Of a DNA stretch of 7,718 nt, positions 3 through 7,718 are shown in pieces; the first letter of the stretch is position 1, and every line of letters starts with the position of its first letter. A model generated the notes under the pieces. That model saw only the letters and a program-made list of their open reading frames with translations, was not told the DNA's origin and did not search any database. The position numbers and the translations under genes are program-made. The DNA is from Deltaproteobacteria bacterium (GTDB taxonomy: Bacteria; Desulfobacterota; DSM-4660; Desulfatiglandales; B25-G16). The DNA is taken from assembly GCA_019310745.1 (NCBI GenBank), contig JAFDDS010000025.1:1-7718 (forward strand), written 5' to 3'.

Positions 3-380
3 GAAAAGGACTTTGGGTTCAAGGGCAGTACGTTTCACAGGATCATCCCGAACTTCATGCTTCAGGGTGGCGATTTTACCAATCATAACGGGACAGGTGG
101 TAGGTCGATCTACGGCAGCAAATTTGACGATGAGAATTTCACGCTCAGCCACACGAACCCTGGGACTGTTTCAATGGCAAATGCGGGTCCCAATACGAAT
201 GGCTCGCAATTCTTTATCACCACCACCAAAACTGCCTGGCTTGACGGCAAGCATGTGGTCTTTGGAACGGTAACCGACGGCATGGATGTGGTCAAACACA
301 TAGAGGCATTGGGATCAGCGAGTGGACAACCCTCGAAACAGGTTCGCATCAGAGATTGTGGTCAACTGTCAACTGAATAA
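3..380 (+). CDS. Cyclophilin-type peptidyl-prolyl cis-trans isomerase, 3' part
   Basis: This enzyme isomerises Xaa-Pro peptide bonds (EC 5.2.1.8) and helps proteins fold. The 5' end lies outside the window; 125 codons remain in the frame beginning at base 3, followed by TAA. The visible part holds the cyclophilin core: FHRIIPNFM with the catalytic Arg, QGGDF, the GTGGRSIYG loop, [15 protein letters not shown], and [10 protein letters not shown] with the Trp and His that line the proline/cyclosporin pocket, then an IRDCGQL end. The loop and pocket residues resemble eukaryotic cyclophilin A more than the short bacterial PpiB type. No signal peptide can be judged because the start is missing. 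ATG codons inside the preserved part are internal methionines. The gene ends 23 bp before the left inverted repeat. The family call is very secure; the physiological substrate is unknown. Confidence 0.95.
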
Positions 381-506: not shown

Positions 507-519
507 TTTACCAAACAGT

Positions 520-583
520 GTATAACCATTCACTGCACATAGACAGCTCGTAAGTTCGCCGCCAATGAGTTCAATCATTATGC
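520..583 (+). other. attC site 1 (probable, altered R' core)
   Basis: The R'' box GTATAAC (520-526) pairs with the R' box ATTATGC (577-583), and the next bases CATTCACT pair with TGAATC, giving an imperfect palindrome of attC size. The R' box should begin with G (GTTATGC) but has A at 577, next to the normal cleavage point. It belongs to a cassette whose body is lost; only 13 bp separate it from the left inverted repeat. It is the weakest of the five sites. Confidence 0.6.
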
Positions 584-607
584 CTCTAAACAAAAAAGGT
601 TCCAAGA

Positions 608-1774
608 ATGAAAGATTCAACAGACCTTATCAGATTCACTGACTGTTATGATGAGATCAACGGAAAAACCGTGAAAACAATCAATCCTCCGGTTTACAAC
701 GGCTCAACCGTATTATTTAAAAGTTATGAAGATCTTCATCAGGCAAATTTGGGAGAATACGGCGGAATCACTTACGGAACAGACCGTCTTCCGACGCAGA
801 GAATTTTTGAAGAAACCCTCAGAAAACTTGAAGGCGGGTATCTTACCAGGGCTTTTCAGTCAGGAATAAGCGCCATTACAAATACGCTGCTTGCATTTAC
901 AGAAAGCGACGACCATATTCTTGTCTGTGAAAATGTTTACGGTCCTACCGTGCGTTTCTGCAATAAGATACTTTCCAAATACAATGTGGGGGTCACATTT
1001 GTTCCTTCTGCTGTTGGTACGGATATCGCCGGATATATCAGGCGTAATACAAAGCTGATATTCCTTGAATCGCCGGGATCAAATACATTTGAAATTCAGG
1101 ATATTCCTGCTGTTACGGAGATTGCCCGTGAAAAAAATATCATTACTGTACTTGATAATACCTGGGCAACACCTCTCTATCTGAAACCATTGGAACTGGG
1201 TGTTGATATATCAGTCCAGTCGGTCACAAAATATATTTCCGGTCATTCCGATGTGCTGCTGGGAGCTGTTACGGTGAATGAGAAATATTCAGAAGCATTT
1301 GACAATTATTACAGTATAATGGGAATTTTTTCATCACCGTATGACTGTTATCTCGCACTTCGGGGTCTTAAAACGCTGGCAGTACGTCTGAAACAGCATG
1401 AAAAGTCCGCACTTAAAATCGCACGATGGCTCGAAACAGTTGGCATGGTGAGTAATGTTATCCATCCGGCATTACCGGGACATCCCCAGAACCGTATATG
1501 GAAGAGAGATTTTGCCGGTTCTTCCGGCCTTTTTGCTTTCACATTCAAGGAAGACTTTTCGGAAGATAAAATTGCTTCTTTTATAAATTCGCTTAATCTT
1601 TTCGGTATCGGTTACAGTTGGGGAGGTTTTAAAAGTCTTATCACTGCCGGAAAATACAGACGTCCTGCAGGTTCGGAGTATTCAGGGAAAACTGTAATAC
1701 GTCTGAATATCGGTCTGGAGGATACCAAAGATATAATGAATGATCTTAAAAAAGGATTTGAAGCTCTGAAATAA
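608..1774 (+). CDS. metC: Cystathionine beta-lyase (MetC type, PLP-dependent)
   Basis: This cytosolic enzyme cleaves cystathionine to homocysteine, pyruvate and ammonia (EC 4.4.1.13), the penultimate step of methionine synthesis by transsulfuration; the family also has cysteine-desulfhydrase activity. The 388 residues are full length for the Cys/Met-metabolism fold-type I family. Visible marks are the YGTDR motif (Tyr56, Arg60) that contacts PLP phosphate of the partner subunit, QSGISA near 84-89, LESPGS at 153-158, LDNTWATPL with cofactor-binding Asp183, SVTKYISGHSD with the PLP lysine Lys208, YSWGG at 336-340, and Arg365 near the substrate carboxylate. HPALPGHP and SWGG favour the proteobacterial MetC/beta-lyase subgroup over gamma-lyases or O-acylhomoserine sulfhydrylases. 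ATG 608 is preceded by AAAGG eight bases upstream and lies 24 bp after attC 1. It is the first cassette; amino-acid biosynthetic cargo is unusual but not unknown in integrons. Confidence 0.9.
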   Translation: MKDSTDLIRFTDCYDEINGKTVKTINPPVYNGSTVLFKSYEDLHQANLGEYGGITYGTDRLPTQRIFEETLRKLEGGYLTRAFQSGISAITNTLLAFTESDDHILVCENVYGPTVRFCNKILSKYNVGVTFVPSAVGTDIAGYIRRNTKLIFLESPGSNTFEIQDIPAVTEIAREKNIITVLDNTWATPLYLKPLELGVDISVQSVTKYISGHSDVLLGAVTVNEKYSEAFDNYYSIMGIFSSPYDCYLALRGLKTLAVRLKQHEKSALKIARWLETVGMVSNVIHPALPGHPQNRIWKRDFAGSSGLFAFTFKEDFSEDKIASFINSLNLFGIGYSWGGFKSLITAGKYRRPAGSEYSGKTVIRLNIGLEDTKDIMNDLKKGFEALK

Positions 1775-1798
1775 ACCGCTTTTCTACCAATAAAAAGG

Positions 1799-1924
1799 CA
1801 TGAACCCGGCGCTGCACCCGACCGCTATTCTGCTGGCGCCCTTCGACAATCTCAGGACTTTCAGCTCCTTCGACAAACTCAGGGCTTTCAGCTTCATAGC
1901 GGCAGGTGAGCTTGGTCGTTATAT
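1799..1924 (+). other. attC site 2 (126 bp, with tandem repeat in loop)
   Basis: R'' CATGAAC (1799-1805) and R' GTTATAT (1918-1924) flank a long imperfect hairpin. The strongest stem is CACCCGACCGCTA (1815-1827) against TAGCGGCAGGTG (1897-1908), with unpaired bases as is normal in attC. The variable terminal part is enlarged by two 27-bp tandem repeats. R'' departs from the usual YAAC by having GAAC. The site separates the metC and DUF6544 cassettes. Confidence 0.8.
1841..1894 (+). repeat. Two tandem 27-bp repeats inside attC 2
   Basis: Units 1841-1867 and 1868-1894 match at 24 of 27 positions by eye. Each begins CTTCGACAA and contains CTCAGG followed by CTTTCAGCT. The CTTCGACAA-CTCAGG core resembles a short imperfect palindrome that I recall as dispersed in many bacterial genomes (CCTTCGACAAGCTCAGG). 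Both units lie in the terminal loop region of the attC hairpin, where length varies freely without harming recombination. Confidence 0.85.
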
Positions 1925-1956
1925 TCTTTAATAAAAACAAGGGACGGATTATTATC

Positions 1957-2829
1957 ATGGATAAAAAACGATTTATAAAAATTGGTGCGGTTGTAATCGG
2001 GATTTTCATATTTGGGATACTTTTATTTTTGATGGTTAATTCTTATTCAATGAATCGGATGGTTGAAAATGAAATTGAAGAACTTATTTCAGAAGCAAAA
2101 AATATAGGAGTTATGACTTATTCGGTAAAAGATATTGAGGGTCTTCCCGACCCTGTTCAACGATATTTCCGATATGCCCTGAAAGACGGTCAGGAATATA
2201 TCAGATTTGCCAGCATGAAAGCTGTAGGAAAATTCAGAAGACCTCTTCAGAAACAATGGACAAAAATGGCTACCCGCCAATATTTCATTACAAAGCCCCT
2301 CGGAATGATATTTGACGCTGTTATGAAACAAAATTCTGTCATGTGGTTTGATATTCGGGACAAATACTACCGGAAGAAAGGCGGAATGTTCGTAAATATA
2401 TTATCGGGGTTTAATGTTCTTAATGAATCTGATGTAAAAGAACTTAATAATACTACATTTCTTCGCTGCATTGGCGAAGCAGTGATGTTTCCGACATGTT
2501 TGCTCCAGAGTGAATACATAAAATGGGAACCGATTGATAAGAATAGTGCTAAAGCCATCGTAACTGACGGCAATAATAAAGGGATTTATAAGTTTTATTT
2601 TAACGATGTAGGCGAAATTGTGAAATATGAATCAGATGACCGTTATGACAGAATTGACGGTAAATTTCAGAAAGTAGGGTCTGTTGCTGTCAGAAGTCAT
2701 TATAAGGAAATCGATGGTATTAAAGTGCCTACAGAATTTCTAATCACACGAATTCTACCAGACGGTACTCATGAGGAATTTTGGAAAGGAGAAGTTACAA
2801 ACATCCACTATAACATGCTAAAGAAATAA
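1957..2829 (+). CDS. Membrane-anchored DUF6544 family protein
   Basis: The 290-residue protein has one N-terminal hydrophobic segment at about residues 8-28, after a Lys/Arg-rich start (MDKKRFIK). This is a signal anchor that would leave the rest outside the cytoplasmic membrane. The soluble part matches what I know of DUF6544 proteins: LPDPVQRYFRYAL at 63-75, a G.FR....W stretch near 92-100, a Y....P.G.IFDAV run, and an FP..LL..EYIKWEP segment. The family has no established biochemical role, so none is given. ATG 1957 is chosen over the in-frame GTG at 1906, which lies inside attC 2; a moderate AAGGGA stands 12 bases before the ATG. The gene is AT-rich compared with the ureohydrolase cassette, suggesting a different source. 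It is the only gene of the second cassette. Confidence 0.75.
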   Translation: MDKKRFIKIGAVVIGIFIFGILLFLMVNSYSMNRMVENEIEELISEAKNIGVMTYSVKDIEGLPDPVQRYFRYALKDGQEYIRFASMKAVGKFRRPLQKQWTKMATRQYFITKPLGMIFDAVMKQNSVMWFDIRDKYYRKKGGMFVNILSGFNVLNESDVKELNNTTFLRCIGEAVMFPTCLLQSEYIKWEPIDKNSAKAIVTDGNNKGIYKFYFNDVGEIVKYESDDRYDRIDGKFQKVGSVAVRSHYKEIDGIKVPTEFLITRILPDGTHEEFWKGEVTNIHYNMLKK

Positions 2830-2877
2830 TAGGAGAGCGAAGTATTTCAGATAGTGCTAACTACTTGATTAATATGA

Positions 2878-2977
2878 ATACAACAGGATGCAGGCTGACA
2901 CAAAAAACCGGCGAGATTTTATAGCAGATCGAAATGTCTTTTTCGGCTTTTTGTGCAGCTGATCCTGAGCGTTAACC
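2878..2977 (+). other. attC site 3 (100 bp)
   Basis: R'' ATACAAC (2878-2884) and R' GTTAACC (2971-2977) bracket a clear hairpin. AGGATGCAGGCTGACACAAA on the left pairs with TTTGTGCAGCTGATCCT on the right, leaving a few extrahelical bases; such bases define strand choice in integron recombination. The hairpin continues through AAAAAACCGG and CGGCTTTTT. It separates the DUF6544 and cupin/VOC cassettes. Confidence 0.85.
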
Positions 2978-2996
2978 CAAATATTGGAATGAACAT

Positions 2997-3329
2997 ATGA
3001 GAGAAATTTTTCCTGATCCGATAAAGAACCTTCCCAAAGCAGATATTCCGCTGAAGGGCCTTACCGCCTATCTCTCTCAATCCAAAACACACCAGATTCT
3101 TTTTATGCAGTTTAAAGAAGACATAGAATTACCAGAGCATTCCCACGAAAGCCAGTGGGGGATTGTTCTTGATGGGAGAATTGATTTAACGGTTGACGGC
3201 GTAGTAAAGACTTACTTAAAAGGTGATCGCTACTTTATTCCGTCTGGGGTGAAACATTCAGCAAAAATATACATAGGATATGCGGATATCACGTTTTTCA
3301 ATGAAAAGGATCGTTATAAAACGAAATGA
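2997..3329 (+). CDS. Single-domain cupin protein
   Basis: This 110-residue protein is a small conserved beta-barrel. Cupin motif 1 is LPEHSHESQWGIVLDGRIDL with His48 and His50, and motif 2 is DRYFIPSGVKHSAKI with His87. These three histidines are likely metal ligands. The usual motif-1 glutamate position is occupied by Gln53, a variant found in one family of small cupins. Small cupins serve as enzymes or ligand-binding proteins, and the sequence alone does not say which; no signal peptide is visible. ATG 2997 lies 19 bp after attC 3 with only a weak GGA upstream. The stop codon overlaps the VOC gene start by four bases (ATGA), so the two are probably translated together. A two-gene cassette suggests a shared substrate or response, but that is inference. 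Confidence 0.85.
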   Translation: MREIFPDPIKNLPKADIPLKGLTAYLSQSKTHQILFMQFKEDIELPEHSHESQWGIVLDGRIDLTVDGVVKTYLKGDRYFIPSGVKHSAKIYIGYADITFFNEKDRYKTK

Positions 3330-3745
3330 CAGAAAAAATAAGAATAGATTCCCTTGATCATTTGGTTTTGACGGTAAGAGATATTTCAAGAACGAGTTCT
3401 TTTTACAGGCAAGTACTTGGCATGCAGGAAATTTCCTTCGGTGGAGATCGAAAAGCATTAATATTTGGAAGTCATAAAATCAATCTGCATGAATATGGGA
3501 AGGAAATTGACCCAAAAGCTGAGCATCCTACGCCGGGTTCCGCTGACCTGTGCTTTATAACTCCCACTCCTATTGAGGAAGTTGAAAAATATATCCGAAC
3601 ATGCGGAATTAATATTGTGGAAGGGCCTGTCCGAAGGACTGGAGCAAAAGGCACGATTTTATCAATTTACCTCCGTGATCCTGACGGCAATCTCATTGAG
3701 CTGTCAAATCACATAGAATCCAAAGAAGAAAATGAAAAGGGTTAA
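3326..3745 (+). CDS. VOC-superfamily (glyoxalase/bleomycin-resistance fold) protein
   Basis: The 139-residue protein has two beta-alpha-beta-beta-beta modules, the usual size of a single VOC chain that dimerises. Module 1 begins LDHLVLTVRDI (His12) and contains FGSHKINLHEYG (His55, Glu56). Module 2 has PGSADLCFI (Asp74) and ends YLRDPDGNLIELSNH (Glu125). His12, His55 or Glu56, and Glu125 are candidate metal ligands. The HKINLHE and RDPDGNLIE stretches fit the dioxygenase/glyoxalase-like subgroup rather than classical glyoxalase I; FosX-type fosfomycin enzymes share the fold, but no resistance is claimed. Its ATG overlaps the cupin stop, and a purine-rich GAAAAGGA lies about 15 bases upstream. 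The TAA stop sits inside the R'' box of attC 4, a common arrangement in cassettes. Confidence 0.85.
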   Translation: MTEKIRIDSLDHLVLTVRDISRTSSFYRQVLGMQEISFGGDRKALIFGSHKINLHEYGKEIDPKAEHPTPGSADLCFITPTPIEEVEKYIRTCGINIVEGPVRRTGAKGTILSIYLRDPDGNLIELSNHIESKEENEKG

Positions 3746-3826
3746 CCAGACACTCCTGCGGGTGGGAAGAAGCGCGGGGGCTTTACGGGCAAGGCTTTTG
3801 GCCCGCCGCTGAGTTTTACGTTAGCC
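3740..3826 (+). other. attC site 4 (87 bp)
   Basis: R'' GGTTAAC (3740-3746) pairs with R' GTTAGCC (3820-3826). Beyond them ACTC and GCGGG on the left face CCCGC and GAGT on the right, and the centre is GC-rich. The stop codon of the VOC gene is part of R''. It separates the cupin/VOC and AhpD-like cassettes. Confidence 0.85.
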
Positions 3827-3880
3827 CCCTAAATTGGTAGCGGGCAGTTCGATATTTATCAAAAAAACAGAACCACAAAT

Positions 3881-3887
3881 AAGGAGG
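3881..3887 (+). promoter_or_regulatory. Strong Shine-Dalgarno site of the AhpD-like gene
   Basis: AAGGAGG stands nine bases before ATG 3897 and fixes that start against the in-frame TTG at 3834, which lies just 7 bp after the attC and has no ribosome site. Confidence 0.85.
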
Positions 3888-3896
3888 AAAAAGAAA

Positions 3897-4241
3897 ATGA
3901 TTGAAAGTCCATTGGAATTAAGAAAAAACCATAGTGTACAATTCGAAAAATATAAAGAACTTATGCCTGAAATCGGTCATGCTTATGATGTGTTGCCAGA
4001 GAAGGTTTTTAAAGATGGAAAAATAGCCGCAAAAATAAAGCGATTAATGGCACTTACTGGGTCATTGGTGCACGGTTGCCCAGCTTGCATTCTTTTTCAG
4101 ACGGAAAAAGCTTTAGACCTTGGGGCGGATGTGGAAGAGATACTAGAGTCCTGCGCTGTTGCAATTAGCCTCGGCGGTACAATGGCGGCTGGTGAAACGA
4201 CAAGGGTGATTCAACATTTAACTGAATTAGGCAAGATCTAG
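3897..4241 (+). CDS. Carboxymuconolactone decarboxylase / AhpD-like family protein
   Basis: The 114-residue all-helical protein belongs to the CMD fold family, whose members act as decarboxylases or, with a CXXC pair, as thiol-based peroxide-reducing partners similar to AhpD. The key segment is VHGCPACILFQTEKALDLG with Cys61 and Cys64, followed by GADVEEILESCAVAISLGG, the typical second helix pair. In AhpD-type proteins a His usually lies four residues after the second Cys; here it is Gln68, so the proton relay may differ or be lost. The CXXC keeps redox activity plausible. No peroxiredoxin partner is encoded nearby. The gene is alone in its cassette, and 89 bp of unassigned sequence separates its stop from attC 5. 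The family call is secure; the reaction is unknown. Confidence 0.88.
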   Translation: MIESPLELRKNHSVQFEKYKELMPEIGHAYDVLPEKVFKDGKIAAKIKRLMALTGSLVHGCPACILFQTEKALDLGADVEEILESCAVAISLGGTMAAGETTRVIQHLTELGKI

Positions 4242-4330
4242 CTTTATGTCGCCAGAACTTGAAAAAGATGATTGCTGCTTAATATTCTAGAAAGGTCTTG
4301 TTTGAAGGGCGTATGCAGGAAGCCTTGGGG

Positions 4331-4389
4331 CGCTAACCATTCGCTCAACCAGACCCACTGATCGTGGGCCGGTTAGTTAATCGTTGGGC
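4331..4389 (+). other. attC site 5 (59 bp, canonical R' core)
   Basis: R'' CGCTAAC (4331-4337) pairs with R' GTTGGGC (4383-4389), which matches GTTRRRY exactly. AACC (4347-4350) faces GGTT (4371-4374), and CCCAC (4354-4358) faces GTGGG (4364-4368) around a five-base loop. It is the shortest and most regular attC of the array and separates the AhpD-like and ureohydrolase cassettes. Confidence 0.9.
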
Positions 4390-4457
4390 GGCCATGCCTC
4401 GGCTTTGCGGCAATGGTGGTTTCACAATAAGCAAGTCCTTGAGAGGGAGTCAATATC

Positions 4458-5423
4458 ATGGATGATGGATTTAACTATGACCCTATGTCCGCGCCGCGCT
4501 ACACCGGGGTTGCGACCTTCATGCGCGCGCCACTGGTTTACGACCCGTCCAAGTTGGATATCGCACTCATTGGTGTGCCTTTCGATGGCGGTGTAGAAAA
4601 CCGTCCCGGCCAGCGTCACGGGCCGCGTGATATCCGCAACATGTCGAGCTTGATCCGCACCGTCCATCATGTCACTAGGGTTAACCCGTACAAACTTTGC
4701 CGTGTTGCTGACATGGGCGACGTTCCAATTACTAACACTTTTAATATCGAGGCGAGTCATGCCGATATCACGGAGTTCTATCGCAGGGTGCACGCCGCAG
4801 GAGCGGTGCCGCTGAGCGCGGGGGGCGACCATTCGGTCAGCCTGCCGATTTTGCGTGCGATTGCCGCGGATAGCCCTGTTGGCATGGTGCATATCGACGC
4901 TCACACCGACACCTGTGACGAGGAATTGGGCTCTAGATTCACCCATGGCACACCGTTCCGACGGGCTGTAGAAGAGGGGCTCCTTGATCCCAAACGGACG
5001 GTGCAGATCGGCATCCGTGGTGCCCAGAACACGGAGGAAGGGTGGGCTTTTTCTCTTGAATCTGGCATGCGCGTCATCTTCATTGAGGAGTTTACCAAGC
5101 TGGGTGTTGAGGCAACGATTGCTGAGGCGCAGCGTGTGGTAGGGAATAGCCCTACCTATATCTCCTTCGACGTAGACAGCCTCGACCCGGCATTCGCTCC
5201 TGGTACGGGGACACCAGAGGTTGGAGGGATGACCACTATCGAGGTGCAGACGTTGTTGCGGGGTCTTCGTGGTCTTGATTTGATCGGAGGCGATGTGGTC
5301 GAGGTATCACCGCCATTTGACCCCTCGGGAAACACTGCACTCGTTGGTGCCACGATGATGTTCGAGATTCTGTGCATTCTGGCTGAAGTGGTCGCCCGAC
5401 GAAAGAAGTCGAAAGGGAAATGA
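4458..5423 (+). CDS. Ureohydrolase of the agmatinase/guanidinobutyrase type
   Basis: The enzyme should use a two-manganese centre to hydrolyse a guanidino compound to urea and an amine (EC 3.5.3 class). All ligand motifs are present in the 321 residues: GGDHS with His125; HIDAHTDT with Asp147, His149 and Asp151; SFDVDSLDPAFAPGTGTPEVGG with Asp238 and Asp240; and the late VEVSP with Glu283. THG at 162-164 fits the agmatinase-like branch, not arginase. The opening PRYTGVATFMRAPLV resembles bacterial agmatinase, guanidinobutyrase and proclavaminate amidinohydrolase homologues, so the substrate stays open. ATG 4458 follows GAGAGGGAG with good spacing. The gene is clearly richer in GC than the cassettes before it. 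It fills the last cassette; the right inverted repeat starts three bases after its stop, so its own attC has been lost. The C-terminal RRKKSKGK is a plausible natural end. Confidence 0.9.
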   Translation: MDDGFNYDPMSAPRYTGVATFMRAPLVYDPSKLDIALIGVPFDGGVENRPGQRHGPRDIRNMSSLIRTVHHVTRVNPYKLCRVADMGDVPITNTFNIEASHADITEFYRRVHAAGAVPLSAGGDHSVSLPILRAIAADSPVGMVHIDAHTDTCDEELGSRFTHGTPFRRAVEEGLLDPKRTVQIGIRGAQNTEEGWAFSLESGMRVIFIEEFTKLGVEATIAEAQRVVGNSPTYISFDVDSLDPAFAPGTGTPEVGGMTTIEVQTLLRGLRGLDLIGGDVVEVSPPFDPSGNTALVGATMMFEILCILAEVVARRKKSKGK

Positions 5424-5426
5424 ACA

Positions 5427-5529
5427 GTCGGAGACATAGGTAACAGAAAAGTCTGGATACATAGGTTACACTTTTCTACAAAAATATCTACCTCTCTTAT
5501 CCATCATTAACATGATCCTGTCTTCAAAT
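5427..5529 (-). repeat. Right arm of 103-bp inverted repeat (IS-end remnant)
   Basis: This is the mirror partner of 404-506, with two tandem GTAACCTATGT-TCC type motifs on the minus strand. The arm starts three bases after the ureohydrolase stop and ends 23 bp before the dehydrogenase stop codon. Together the arms enclose the cassette array exactly. Confidence 0.9.
5466..5528 (-). pseudogene. Remnant of a transposase-like C-terminus (right copy)
   Basis: Read on the minus strand, this gives FEDRIMLM..., then RGRYFCRKV and TAA. It is the homologue of the left remnant, with mismatches concentrated in third codon positions. It is in frame with the upstream dehydrogenase, whose stop is at 5553-5555, and the eight codons between (LGKKILRL) do not match the left side. 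No catalytic domain remains; transposase origin is inferred from position against the IS-like tip. Confidence 0.65.
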
Positions 5530-5552: not shown

Positions 5553-6614
5553 TTATGCTTTCTTGCTCGTCTCCTGCTCCTTTTTTTTATTACTAATTCT
5601 TTCATCTGCAAGCCTGTTAGCTATTTCATATGTCGGCTCATTATGCTCTTTAGAAACTGCGATGATTGTGTCGATTTTTTCCTCTATTTCCTCCACCTTC
5701 TTTATTCCTTCCTCTGGTGTGCTGTGCTTTGACTCCATATAAATTGCAATAAGCCCACCTGCATTTATCACATAATCTGGCGCGTAACGTATTCCTTTTT
5801 CATGCAGAATTCTTCCATGGTAATTTTCTTCTAATTGATTGTTGGCAGAACCTGCGACTATTTTACACTTGAGTTTTGGAATAGTCTCATCATTTATTAT
5901 GGCACCAAGACCACATGGAGCAAAAATATGACAATCTACCGAATAGATTTCTTCTGTGTGCACCACCGTTGCTCCAAATTCTTGAGAGACTCTTTTAGTG
6001 AGTTCTTCCCTCATGTCTGCAACGATAAGTTCAGTTTCTTCTTTGTGCAACTCCTTAGCCAGATTATACCCGACATGCCCTACTCCCTGTATTGCGACCC
6101 TTAAACCTGATAAGTTAGAACTTCCGTATACATCCTTTGCACAAGCCCTCATCCCACAAACCACACCATGGGCCGTAAATGGAGAAGGATCGCCAACCTC
6201 TTTGGATATTCCCGCTACATGCTCTGTTTCTTGGTGCATTATTTTTGCGTCCTCAATTCCAATCCCCATATCTTCCCCTGTTATAAATCCTCCCTTAAAT
6301 GTCTCTACGCATCTCCCATGGGCACGTAGAAGTGCCTCGGTTTTCTGCTCAGGTTTCGCAATGATCACTGCCTTTCCACCCCCTGCATCTAAACCTGAAA
6401 TAGACGATTTACGGGTCATGCCTTTCCCAAGCCTCAACACGTCGATGAGCGCTTCTTCCTCGTCACGATAGTTCCACAGCCTGGTACCGCCCCAAGCTGG
6501 TCCCAATGTAGTGTCATTAATGGCTATTATGGCCTTTAGACCTGCCCCTTTGTCGTAAAAGAATGCAACCTCTTCACAACCGTAGTTTTCCAATTTCTCG
6601 AATAGCATCGACAT
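5553..6614 (-). CDS. Leucine dehydrogenase family (Glu/Leu/Phe/Val dehydrogenase)
   Basis: The cytosolic NAD-dependent enzyme deaminates branched-chain amino acids, most likely leucine, to 2-oxo acids and ammonia (EC 1.4.1.9), or runs in reverse. The 353 residues match the usual length. The N-terminal part has LKAIIAINDTTLGPAWGGTR and GMTRKSSISGLDAGGGKAVI, where Lys69 and Lys81 correspond to the substrate-binding and catalytic lysines of Bacillus leucine dehydrogenase; Asp115 lies in TGEDMG. The Rossmann domain begins VAIQGVGHVGYNL (G177, G179, G182), and GSANNQ at 255-260 is the nucleotide-side asparagine motif. The Lys-rich tail is low in complexity. Start choice is open between codon 1 and the Met at codon 3, which is ten bases from the GGAGG site and fits the Bacillus N-terminus. 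It has its own promoter and appears to be a single-gene unit. Phe or Val specificity cannot be excluded. Confidence 0.9.
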   Translation of the reverse strand: MSMLFEKLENYGCEEVAFFYDKGAGLKAIIAINDTTLGPAWGGTRLWNYRDEEEALIDVLRLGKGMTRKSSISGLDAGGGKAVIIAKPEQKTEALLRAHGRCVETFKGGFITGEDMGIGIEDAKIMHQETEHVAGISKEVGDPSPFTAHGVVCGMRACAKDVYGSSNLSGLRVAIQGVGHVGYNLAKELHKEETELIVADMREELTKRVSQEFGATVVHTEEIYSVDCHIFAPCGLGAIINDETIPKLKCKIVAGSANNQLEENYHGRILHEKGIRYAPDYVINAGGLIAIYMESKHSTPEEGIKKVEEIEEKIDTIIAVSKEHNEPTYEIANRLADERISNKKKEQETSKKA

Positions 6615-6733: not shown

Positions 6734-6890
6734 TGAAAATGCATTGTAAAATATAGCCAGTTAAATTTGATGTGGTTTAATGATAGTTTACGAAAAACGC
6801 TAATGGAGAGGGACTGAAAAGGGAGCGGTGTATAAGTTTGGGTGGTCTCAGAGTTTGATCTTTTCATCCATTTATAGTATTTATTGCTTA

Positions 6891-7718
6891 ATGGCTACAT
6901 TGGTAGAATGTAAAAATTTACATGATTATACAGATCCAAAGAGTTTTGTTTTTTTTAACCTTCTTGGTATTTTCCTCCTGTCCATCCTTGTTGGGTGTGC
7001 TGTAATCCCCTTTCCTTATCTGTGGATTGGCAATATCGATCAAGTGAATTTCAGCGAACCATCAGGAATTGCTTTTCATCCTGGGCGCGGAACTTTGTTT
7101 GTCGTCGGGGATGAAGGTGATGTTTGCGAAATCCAAAGAGATGGAACCTTGGTAAAGCAGAAAAGGATTCTTGATGCTGATTTCGAGGGAATAACATGTA
7201 ACCCTTTATCTGGCTTTCTATATATAGTGATCGAAGGAGAGGAAAAAATCATCGAGGTGGATCCTAATAATTTCAGAGTAGTGCGGGAATTTTCAATCGA
7301 TAGGGTTTTCCAGGGAGCAGTTGTTCTTACACCTGGGGGTCATGGTATTGAGGCAATCGCTTTTGTACCTGATTTAAACCACCCGGAAGGTGGAACATTC
7401 TATATTACCAACCAATGTTTTGATCTAAATGATAAGGAAAACCCATCTGCTATCTTTGAACTTGAAGTTCCTCTTAGGAGTAGTTCTCATGGAGGCAATA
7501 GAGCAAAGATCGTAAAGTATTTACCTTTTAAGACCATTGACCTTTCTGCATATGTTATGAGCGATGCAACAAATACTCTCTTCGAAATCACAACTGAAGG
7601 GAAAATTCTCAAGGCCTACGGCTTCCCAGGGGATAACCAGGAAGGAATAGCAGCGGACACAAAAGGATTCCTTTATATCGCCCAGGATTCAGGAGGAATA
7701 ATCAAAATCAAATGGAAC
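6891..7718 (+). CDS. SdiA-regulated (YjiK-like) beta-propeller lipoprotein, 3' end cut off
   Basis: The open frame gives 276 residues to the window edge with no stop. A hydrophobic stretch at about 19-35 ends in the lipobox LVGC with Cys36, so the protein is likely lipid-anchored and faces the periplasm or the outside. After it come propeller-like repeats: EPSGIAFHPGRGTLFVV (56-72), DFEGITCNPLSGFLYIV (97-113), GIEAIAFVP (152-160) with GTFYITNQ, and DNQEGIAADTKGFLYIAQD (248-266). The GIAF.P..G.L..V pattern is that of the SdiA-regulated family (PF06977), whose function is poorly known. The sequence IIKIKWN looks close to the natural C-terminus. The start is uncertain: ATG 6891 has no clear ribosome site, while an in-frame GTG at 6828 follows AAAGGGAG but would make an overlong signal region. 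It is divergent from the dehydrogenase gene. Confidence 0.82.
   Translation, partial: MATLVECKNLHDYTDPKSFVFFNLLGIFLLSILVGCAVIPFPYLWIGNIDQVNFSEPSGIAFHPGRGTLFVVGDEGDVCEIQRDGTLVKQKRILDADFEGITCNPLSGFLYIVIEGEEKIIEVDPNNFRVVREFSIDRVFQGAVVLTPGGHGIEAIAFVPDLNHPEGGTFYITNQCFDLNDKENPSAIFELEVPLRSSSHGGNRAKIVKYLPFKTIDLSAYVMSDATNTLFEITTEGKILKAYGFPGDNQEGIAADTKGFLYIAQDSGGIIKIKWN

What the first reader, a model, noticed from the sequence alone, without database searches (positions are those of the whole stretch)
507..5426. Five-cassette integron array with no integrase
Every junction between the + strand genes from 608 to 5423 is an attC-like palindrome with R''/R' boxes, and no integrase gene is present. The sites share the fold but not the sequence and run from 59 to 126 bp, and the cargo differs in base composition. 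This suggests cassettes collected from several sources and then stranded outside an integron. The cargo (methionine synthesis, guanidine hydrolysis, CMD, cupin/VOC) is metabolic and contains no recognisable antibiotic resistance gene.
Basis: partly seen in the sequence, partly recalled or inferred. Interest (0 to 1): 0.8.

Follow-up and report, generated by a model that had tools for sequence, protein, structure and literature searches.

The report
Stranded integron cassettes between IS remnants
A row of bacterial gene cassettes carrying ordinary metabolic genes, with no integrase beside it, sits exactly between two broken insertion-sequence ends: a common kind of leftover with an unusually clear trace of how it may have been cut loose.

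Summary
The attC observation holds. A covariance model built from 56 attC sites found beside intI genes puts its five best hits in the window, all on the + strand, at the five claimed places (45.2, 32.5, 22.4, 20.6, 13.5 bits; next 6.1). 144 kb of control DNA gave one hit of 13.5 bits or more (15.1). The window encodes no integrase; its genome is not held. By definition this is a CALIN, a common kind of element. A groundwater Rhodocyclales MAG has the same type of end 13 bp from an attC. Best reading: a piece of array severed by IS481-type insertions and left between a cyclophilin and a dehydrogenase gene of a deltaproteobacterium-like host. Whether the IS pair carried it there is open.

The parts
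3..380 (+). left flank: 3' part of a cyclophilin (peptidyl-prolyl isomerase) gene
   Evidence: Pfam PF00160, 135.7 bits
404..507 (+). left inverted-repeat arm: short transposase 3' remnant followed by two tandem TGTAACCTATGTNTCC boxes (463-478, 488-503), tip facing the cassettes; IS481-type end by inference
520..583 (+). attC 0; R' core mutated (ATTATGC instead of GTTRRRY)
   Evidence: 22.4 bits, E 0.0012
608..1774 (+). cassette 1: cystathionine beta-lyase (MetC-like)
   Evidence: TIGR01324, 410.1 bits, cut-off 365.9
1799..1924 (+). attC 1, with a 27-nt tandem repeat in its central part
   Evidence: 20.6 bits, E 0.0028, match 1803-1920; repeat
1957..2829 (+). cassette 2: DUF6920/DUF6544 protein
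   Evidence: PF21900 195.4 bits, PF20181 188.8 bits
2878..2977 (+). attC 2 (weakest)
   Evidence: 13.5 bits, E 0.092, match 2880-2972; heuristic score 15.7
2997..3329 (+). cassette 3, first ORF: cupin
   Evidence: PF07883, 40 bits
3326..3745 (+). cassette 3, second ORF: VOC/glyoxalase-like protein
   Evidence: PF00903, 45.3 bits; solved relative 3huh, 170.9 bits
3740..3826 (+). attC 3
   Evidence: 32.5 bits, E 8.5e-6
3897..4241 (+). cassette 4: carboxymuconolactone decarboxylase/AhpD-like protein
   Evidence: PF02627, 42.6 bits
4331..4389 (+). attC 4 (strongest)
   Evidence: 45.2 bits, E 1.7e-8
4458..5423 (+). cassette 5, truncated (no attC): ureohydrolase, closest to 3-guanidinopropionase
   Evidence: PF00491 305.4 bits; TIGR01230 183.3 bits, cut-off 174.3; 3nip 437.7 bits
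5426..5529 (-). right inverted-repeat arm, same make-up as the left one, tip facing the cassettes
   Evidence: 85 of 104 identical to the left arm
5553..6614 (-). right flank: Glu/Leu/Phe/Val-type dehydrogenase gene, convergent with the cyclophilin
   Evidence: PF00208 and PF02812

Best explanation
It is a CALIN (cluster of attC sites lacking an integron-integrase): four complete integron cassettes and a fifth without its attC, bounded on both sides by inward-facing ends of two related, decayed IS481-type insertion sequences. Shown: the five attC sites, their common strand, no integrase in the window, and the exact inverted-repeat boundaries. Inferred: IS481-type elements inserted at or near both ends of a stretch of a cassette array. 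The right-hand insertion removed the attC of the last cassette and the left-hand one cut off whatever preceded attC 0. The array was thereby separated from its integrase and is now inherited as an immobile block between two convergent host genes, while most of each IS has been lost. The attC sites, perhaps except the core-mutated first one, could still serve an integron-integrase acting in trans; this step rests on a statement in PMC9668308 (passage) and was not tested.
For: Five best model hits on one strand at the junctions against one hit of 13.5 bits or more in 144,018 bp of control; shuffle control; no integrase among the window proteins. Inverted repeat of 85/104 at the exact edges, next best pair of 104-mers 58/104. 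Ten of 14 differences on the outer side of the arms fall in one codon phase, p 0.0037, so the arms look like diverged coding ends. The same boxes lie at both ends of an element with an IS481-family transposase over the cut-off in G496 and at the end of a similar S. meliloti element. In a Rhodocyclales MAG with intI such an end lies 13 bp from an attC.
Against: The window's genome is not held, so an integrase nearby or elsewhere cannot be excluded. attC 2 scores only 13.5 bits, below one control hit. The arms hold only about 19 codons and no family model can name them; 'IS481-type' rests on the boxes, and the S. meliloti transposase scores just under the IS481 cut-off (212.2 against 224). No target duplication was seen by eye. 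That both arms stop matching at the same point is unexplained. Of six comparable ends outside the window, five have no attC close by, so the meeting of IS and array may be coincidence.
Confidence: 0.65

Rival explanations
1. Composite transposon: the two IS481-type elements, when complete, moved the cassettes as one unit into the junction between the cyclophilin and dehydrogenase genes, and later lost their outer parts.
For: The ends are inverted, lie at the exact edges of the array, and the block sits between two convergent genes. A published integron truncated by the same MITE at both ends shows that such bracketing can mobilise an integron piece (PMC3934969, abstract in the listing).
Against: The outer ends are missing, no target duplication was seen, and the arms differ at 19 of 104 positions with a coding pattern, which suggests two separate insertions of related elements rather than one recent pair.
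Confidence: 0.2
2. Assembly chimera: a cassette-array contig and a host contig were joined through IS-end repeats.
For: IS ends are repeats and common break points; in the Rhodocyclales MAG the two exact double-box loci lie at contig ends. The window's genome is not held.
Against: Two separate false joins would be needed, through two arms that differ at 19 of 104 positions.
Confidence: 0.1
3. An ordinary operon whose spacers happen to hold palindromes.
For: All six genes lie on one strand; inverted repeats are frequent in spacers.
Against: Two sites reach 45.2 and 32.5 bits with a strand-specific attC model and all five lead the list; controls and shuffles do not match this. Terminator-like sites are no more frequent than in shuffles (6 against 5.0).
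Confidence: 0.03

Closest known systems
CALIN (IntegronFinder 2.0, PMC9024848; passages read)
   Same: At least two attC sites with cassettes on one strand and no integrase beside them; five sites is close to the reported average of almost six.
   Different: Both edges here are exact IS-type ends; the passages read describe CALIN as degraded integrons without naming a cutting agent.
Integron truncated by the same MITE at both ends in Acinetobacter johnsonii (PMC3934969; only the start of the abstract in the listing)
   Same: A piece of integron bracketed by mobile-element sequence on both sides.
   Different: There a resistance integron and identical 439-bp MITEs; here metabolic cassettes and two diverged IS481-type ends of 104 bp.
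Integron mobilization unit (IMU; name recalled, one review listed, not read)
   Same: Integron material between inverted mobile ends without its own transposase, as recalled.
   Different: No sign that the present unit can still move; the outer IS ends are missing.
IS1111 members that target attC, such as ISKpn4 (PMC11187229; passages read)
   Same: Insertion sequences that meet cassette arrays.
   Different: [quoted passage not shown] The IS481-type ends here lie near but not in attC, and five of six comparable ends elsewhere have no attC close by.

Membership tests
CALIN | at least two attC sites clustered | tested here: met
   five sites, 13.5-45.2 bits; four of five at 20 bits or more
CALIN | no integron-integrase beside the sites | tested here: inconclusive
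   none in the window, which reaches only 519 bp left of the first and 3,329 bp right of the last site; the genome is not held
integron attC site | R''/R' and L''/L' boxes with an unpaired spacer and a preferred strand | tested here: met
   model alignments; attC 0 lacks the G of the R' core and attC 2 fits the outer boxes poorly
integron attC site | recombination by an integron-integrase | not testable with these tools
   needs an attC x attI assay
complete integron | intI and attI next to the cassettes | tested here: not met
   no intI among the window proteins scanned; attI was not searched for with a model
IS481 family ends | terminal inverted repeats shared with an IS481-family element | tested here: met
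   boxes shared with G496 (255.9 bits, cut-off 224) and S. meliloti (212.2 bits, below the cut-off) elements
IS481 family ends | transposase gene with DDE domain | tested here: not met
   only about 19 codons remain in each arm
composite transposon | two complete or functional IS copies around the cargo, with a target duplication | tested here: not met
   only inner ends remain; no duplication seen by eye

The most novel reading that the evidence does not exclude
IS481-type elements with tandem TGTNACCTATGTNTCC boxes cut pieces out of integron arrays and move them, without an integrase, to other places in genomes of environmental bacteria. This would be a route by which CALIN arise and spread.
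Probability: 0.15. Interest if true: 0.55.

Novelty: new member of a known kind. Interest (0 to 1): 0.35.

Why it matters
[quoted passage not shown] An array whose two edges are exact IS-type ends is a case where the cutting agent can be named, which makes IS-mediated severing testable across genomes. The cargo also shows cassettes carrying plain metabolism (methionine synthesis, guanidino-compound breakdown, small cupin, VOC and AhpD-like proteins) rather than resistance.

Tried and rejected
Rfam scan of the window: no match up to E 1; that attC is not an Rfam family is recalled. ARAGORN: no tRNA. Folding the junctions whole was inconclusive for some sites and was replaced by the covariance model.

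Cargo in plasmids by tblastn: CMD none; cupin one hit at 36%; DUF6920 nine records, five of them haloarchaea by name, all under 60%; VOC 71 records, best listed 64.5%; MetC 374 records, listed ones at most 46.4%; ureohydrolase 361 records, listed ones at most 65.4%. Surroundings were opened for three hits only, so 'no operon with this gene order' is tested in part for plasmids and not for chromosomes. No viral match for the IS ends or the CMD protein. PADLOC: no match for the six cargo proteins. Promoter-like and terminator-like sites were not above shuffles (14 against 10.5 with sd 3.0; 6 against 5.0).

IS481-type ends targeting attC: rejected as a general rule. Of six end loci found by pattern or similarity outside the window, L001 has an attC 13 bp away; L002 (contig end, one side only), L003, L004, L043 and L086 have none close by. 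One more, degenerate end in L012 was seen by eye beside a partial attC.

Archaeal host: considered because one dehydrogenase relative (85%) is labelled Aenigmatarchaeota. Eukaryotic host: considered because the cyclophilin is CypD-like. Both set aside: of seven listed cyclophilin relatives at 85% or more that bear an organism name, five are Deltaproteobacteria or Syntrophales MAGs, one Pseudomonadota, one just 'bacterium'.

Literature: nine searches answered. Passages were read in five papers; a sixth had none of the terms asked for. The two searches that join IS481 with CALIN or attC listed 2 and 5 papers; judged by title and abstract start only, none describes this arrangement. This does not prove that it is not in print.
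Full report
What was checked. The window (7718 bp; no genome held) has six + strand ORFs between 608 and 5423. They encode a cystathionine beta-lyase, a DUF6920/DUF6544 protein, a cupin, a VOC protein, a CMD protein and a ureohydrolase. A cyclophilin fragment lies to the left and a convergent Glu/Leu/Phe/Val-type dehydrogenase to the right.

attC sites, first method. A heuristic scan for paired R and L boxes found three sites on the + strand, at 2878-2977, 3740-3826 and 4331-4389, scoring 14.7 to 15.7. In 20 control loci (145,889 bp) sites of 14 or more occur 0.82 times per 10 kb, both strands counted; in 20 loci beside intI genes (109,064 bp) 16.5 times. Of 200 dinucleotide shuffles of the window none had three such sites on the + strand; the mean was 0.225, though a single shuffled site reached 18.5. 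The other two sites were scored apart: 1799-1924 at 15.1, shut out at first by a box filter, and 520-583 at 11.4, its R' core being ATT.

attC sites, second method. A covariance model was built from 56 attC sites of 18 loci beside intI genes. Over the whole window with filters off it gives 45.2 bits (4331-4389), 32.5 (3740-3826), 22.4 (520-583), 20.6 (1803-1920) and 13.5 (2880-2972), all on the + strand, then 6.1. Over 144,018 bp of 18 control loci one hit reached 13.5 bits, 15.1 in L075. The weakest site is therefore not secure alone. Eight hits in a Vibrio cassette array score 11.8 to 20.2 with this model, so 13.5 is in the range of real sites.

Cassettes. From attC 0 onwards: MetC; DUF6920; cupin plus VOC; CMD; and the ureohydrolase without an attC. 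Pairwise identity of the five sites is 63-76% of the shorter one under a permissive alignment (no shuffled baseline was made), compatible with 'same fold, different sequence'. G+C is 35-41% in five ORFs and 56.6% in the last, so a foreign origin stands out only for the last. Its closest solved relative is 3-guanidinopropionase 3nip (437.7 bits), ahead of guanidinobutyrase 3nio (310.3). A 53% relative of the VOC protein, at 3315-3701 of L087 from Vibrio sp. HDW18, lies between two attC hits at 3167-3286 and 3708-3812 (13.3 and 11.8 bits); [quoted passage not shown]

Boundaries. The array is bounded by a 104-bp inverted repeat, 404-507 and 5426-5529, 85 of 104 identical; the next best pair of 104-mers in the window has 58. 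The right arm begins after 2 bp from the last stop codon, and 12 bp separate the left arm from attC 0. Each arm has two tandem boxes of the type TGTNACCTATGTNTCC next to the array and, on the outer side, a short frame ending at a stop codon just before the boxes. Of 14 differences on that side 10 fall in one codon phase (p 0.0037 over three phases), as expected for two related coding sequences that diverged under selection.

Identity of the arms. They also occur at the end of a S. meliloti pSymB element whose transposase scores 212.2 bits, just below the cut-off (alignment). Against plasmids the left arm matched 9 records (8 Sinorhizobium, 1 Legionella) and the right arm 3, one of them under a feature annotated as DDE-type transposase, in each case over the box part only. 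Exact pattern searches found the double box in one MAG of genome contigs (2 loci), in 2 of 150 genomes of that MAG's order and 2 of 398 of its phylum (the MAG is in both counts), and in no viral contig.

A second case. That MAG, a groundwater Rhodocyclales bacterium, has an integron integrase (481.6 bits) and attC sites (39.0 bits in L001, 33.3 in L012, 56.1 and 27.0 in L013). In L001 13 bp separate the attC from the first IS box. In L012 a degenerate end of the same type lies beside a partial attC, seen by eye. So IS481-type ends abut a cassette array elsewhere too. They do not depend on attC: L002, L003, L004, L043 and L086 show ends without an attC close by.

Host. Of seven listed cyclophilin relatives at 85% or more that bear an organism name, five are Deltaproteobacteria or Syntrophales MAGs. 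The dehydrogenase has an 85% relative labelled Aenigmatarchaeota and a 63% one labelled Thermodesulfobacteriota. The organism-named relatives listed for the CMD cassette are Desulfobacterales, Desulfohalobiaceae and Desulfobacteraceae MAGs at 60-66%. A deltaproteobacterium-like host is the simplest reading; it is an inference.

Mechanism. Shown: an attC array on one strand, no integrase in the window, IS-type ends exactly at both edges. Inferred: two IS481-type insertions cut a stretch out of a cassette array, and decay then removed most of each IS. Open: whether the IS pair also carried the array here. The missing outer ends and the 18% divergence of the arms speak against a recent composite transposon. 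That both arms lose similarity at the same point, 23 bp from each neighbouring stop codon, is unexplained.

Known or new. As a kind this is a CALIN, reported as frequent (passages). Integrons truncated by a mobile element at both ends are known (PMC3934969, start of the abstract in the listing). The new points are a metabolic array with IS481-type ends at both edges and a second abutment in an unrelated MAG.

Noticed in passing
window 3-380: The flanking cyclophilin is of the CypD/CypA kind (best solved match human-type peptidyl-prolyl isomerase F, 208.8 bits), yet its named close relatives are mostly deltaproteobacterial MAGs.
   Followed up: partly
window 5553-6614: The dehydrogenase has an 85% relative labelled Candidatus Aenigmatarchaeota; a misbinned MAG or a transfer between domains.
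   Followed up: no
window 404 and 5529: Both inverted-repeat arms lose similarity at the same point, and each point lies 23 bp from the stop codon of the neighbouring host gene. Unexplained.
   Followed up: partly
window 1840-1893: A 27-nt unit (CCTTCGACAA...) repeated in tandem in the centre of attC 1, 93% identical.
   Followed up: no
L013 627-725 and 1066-1162: Two further attC sites (56.1 and 27.0 bits) at the start of another contig of the Rhodocyclales MAG, so its array is split over several contigs or there are several arrays.
   Followed up: no
   Followed up: no
window 6828-7718: Partial SdiA-regulated/phytase-like beta-propeller gene at the right edge (30.2 and 29.5 bits).
   Followed up: no
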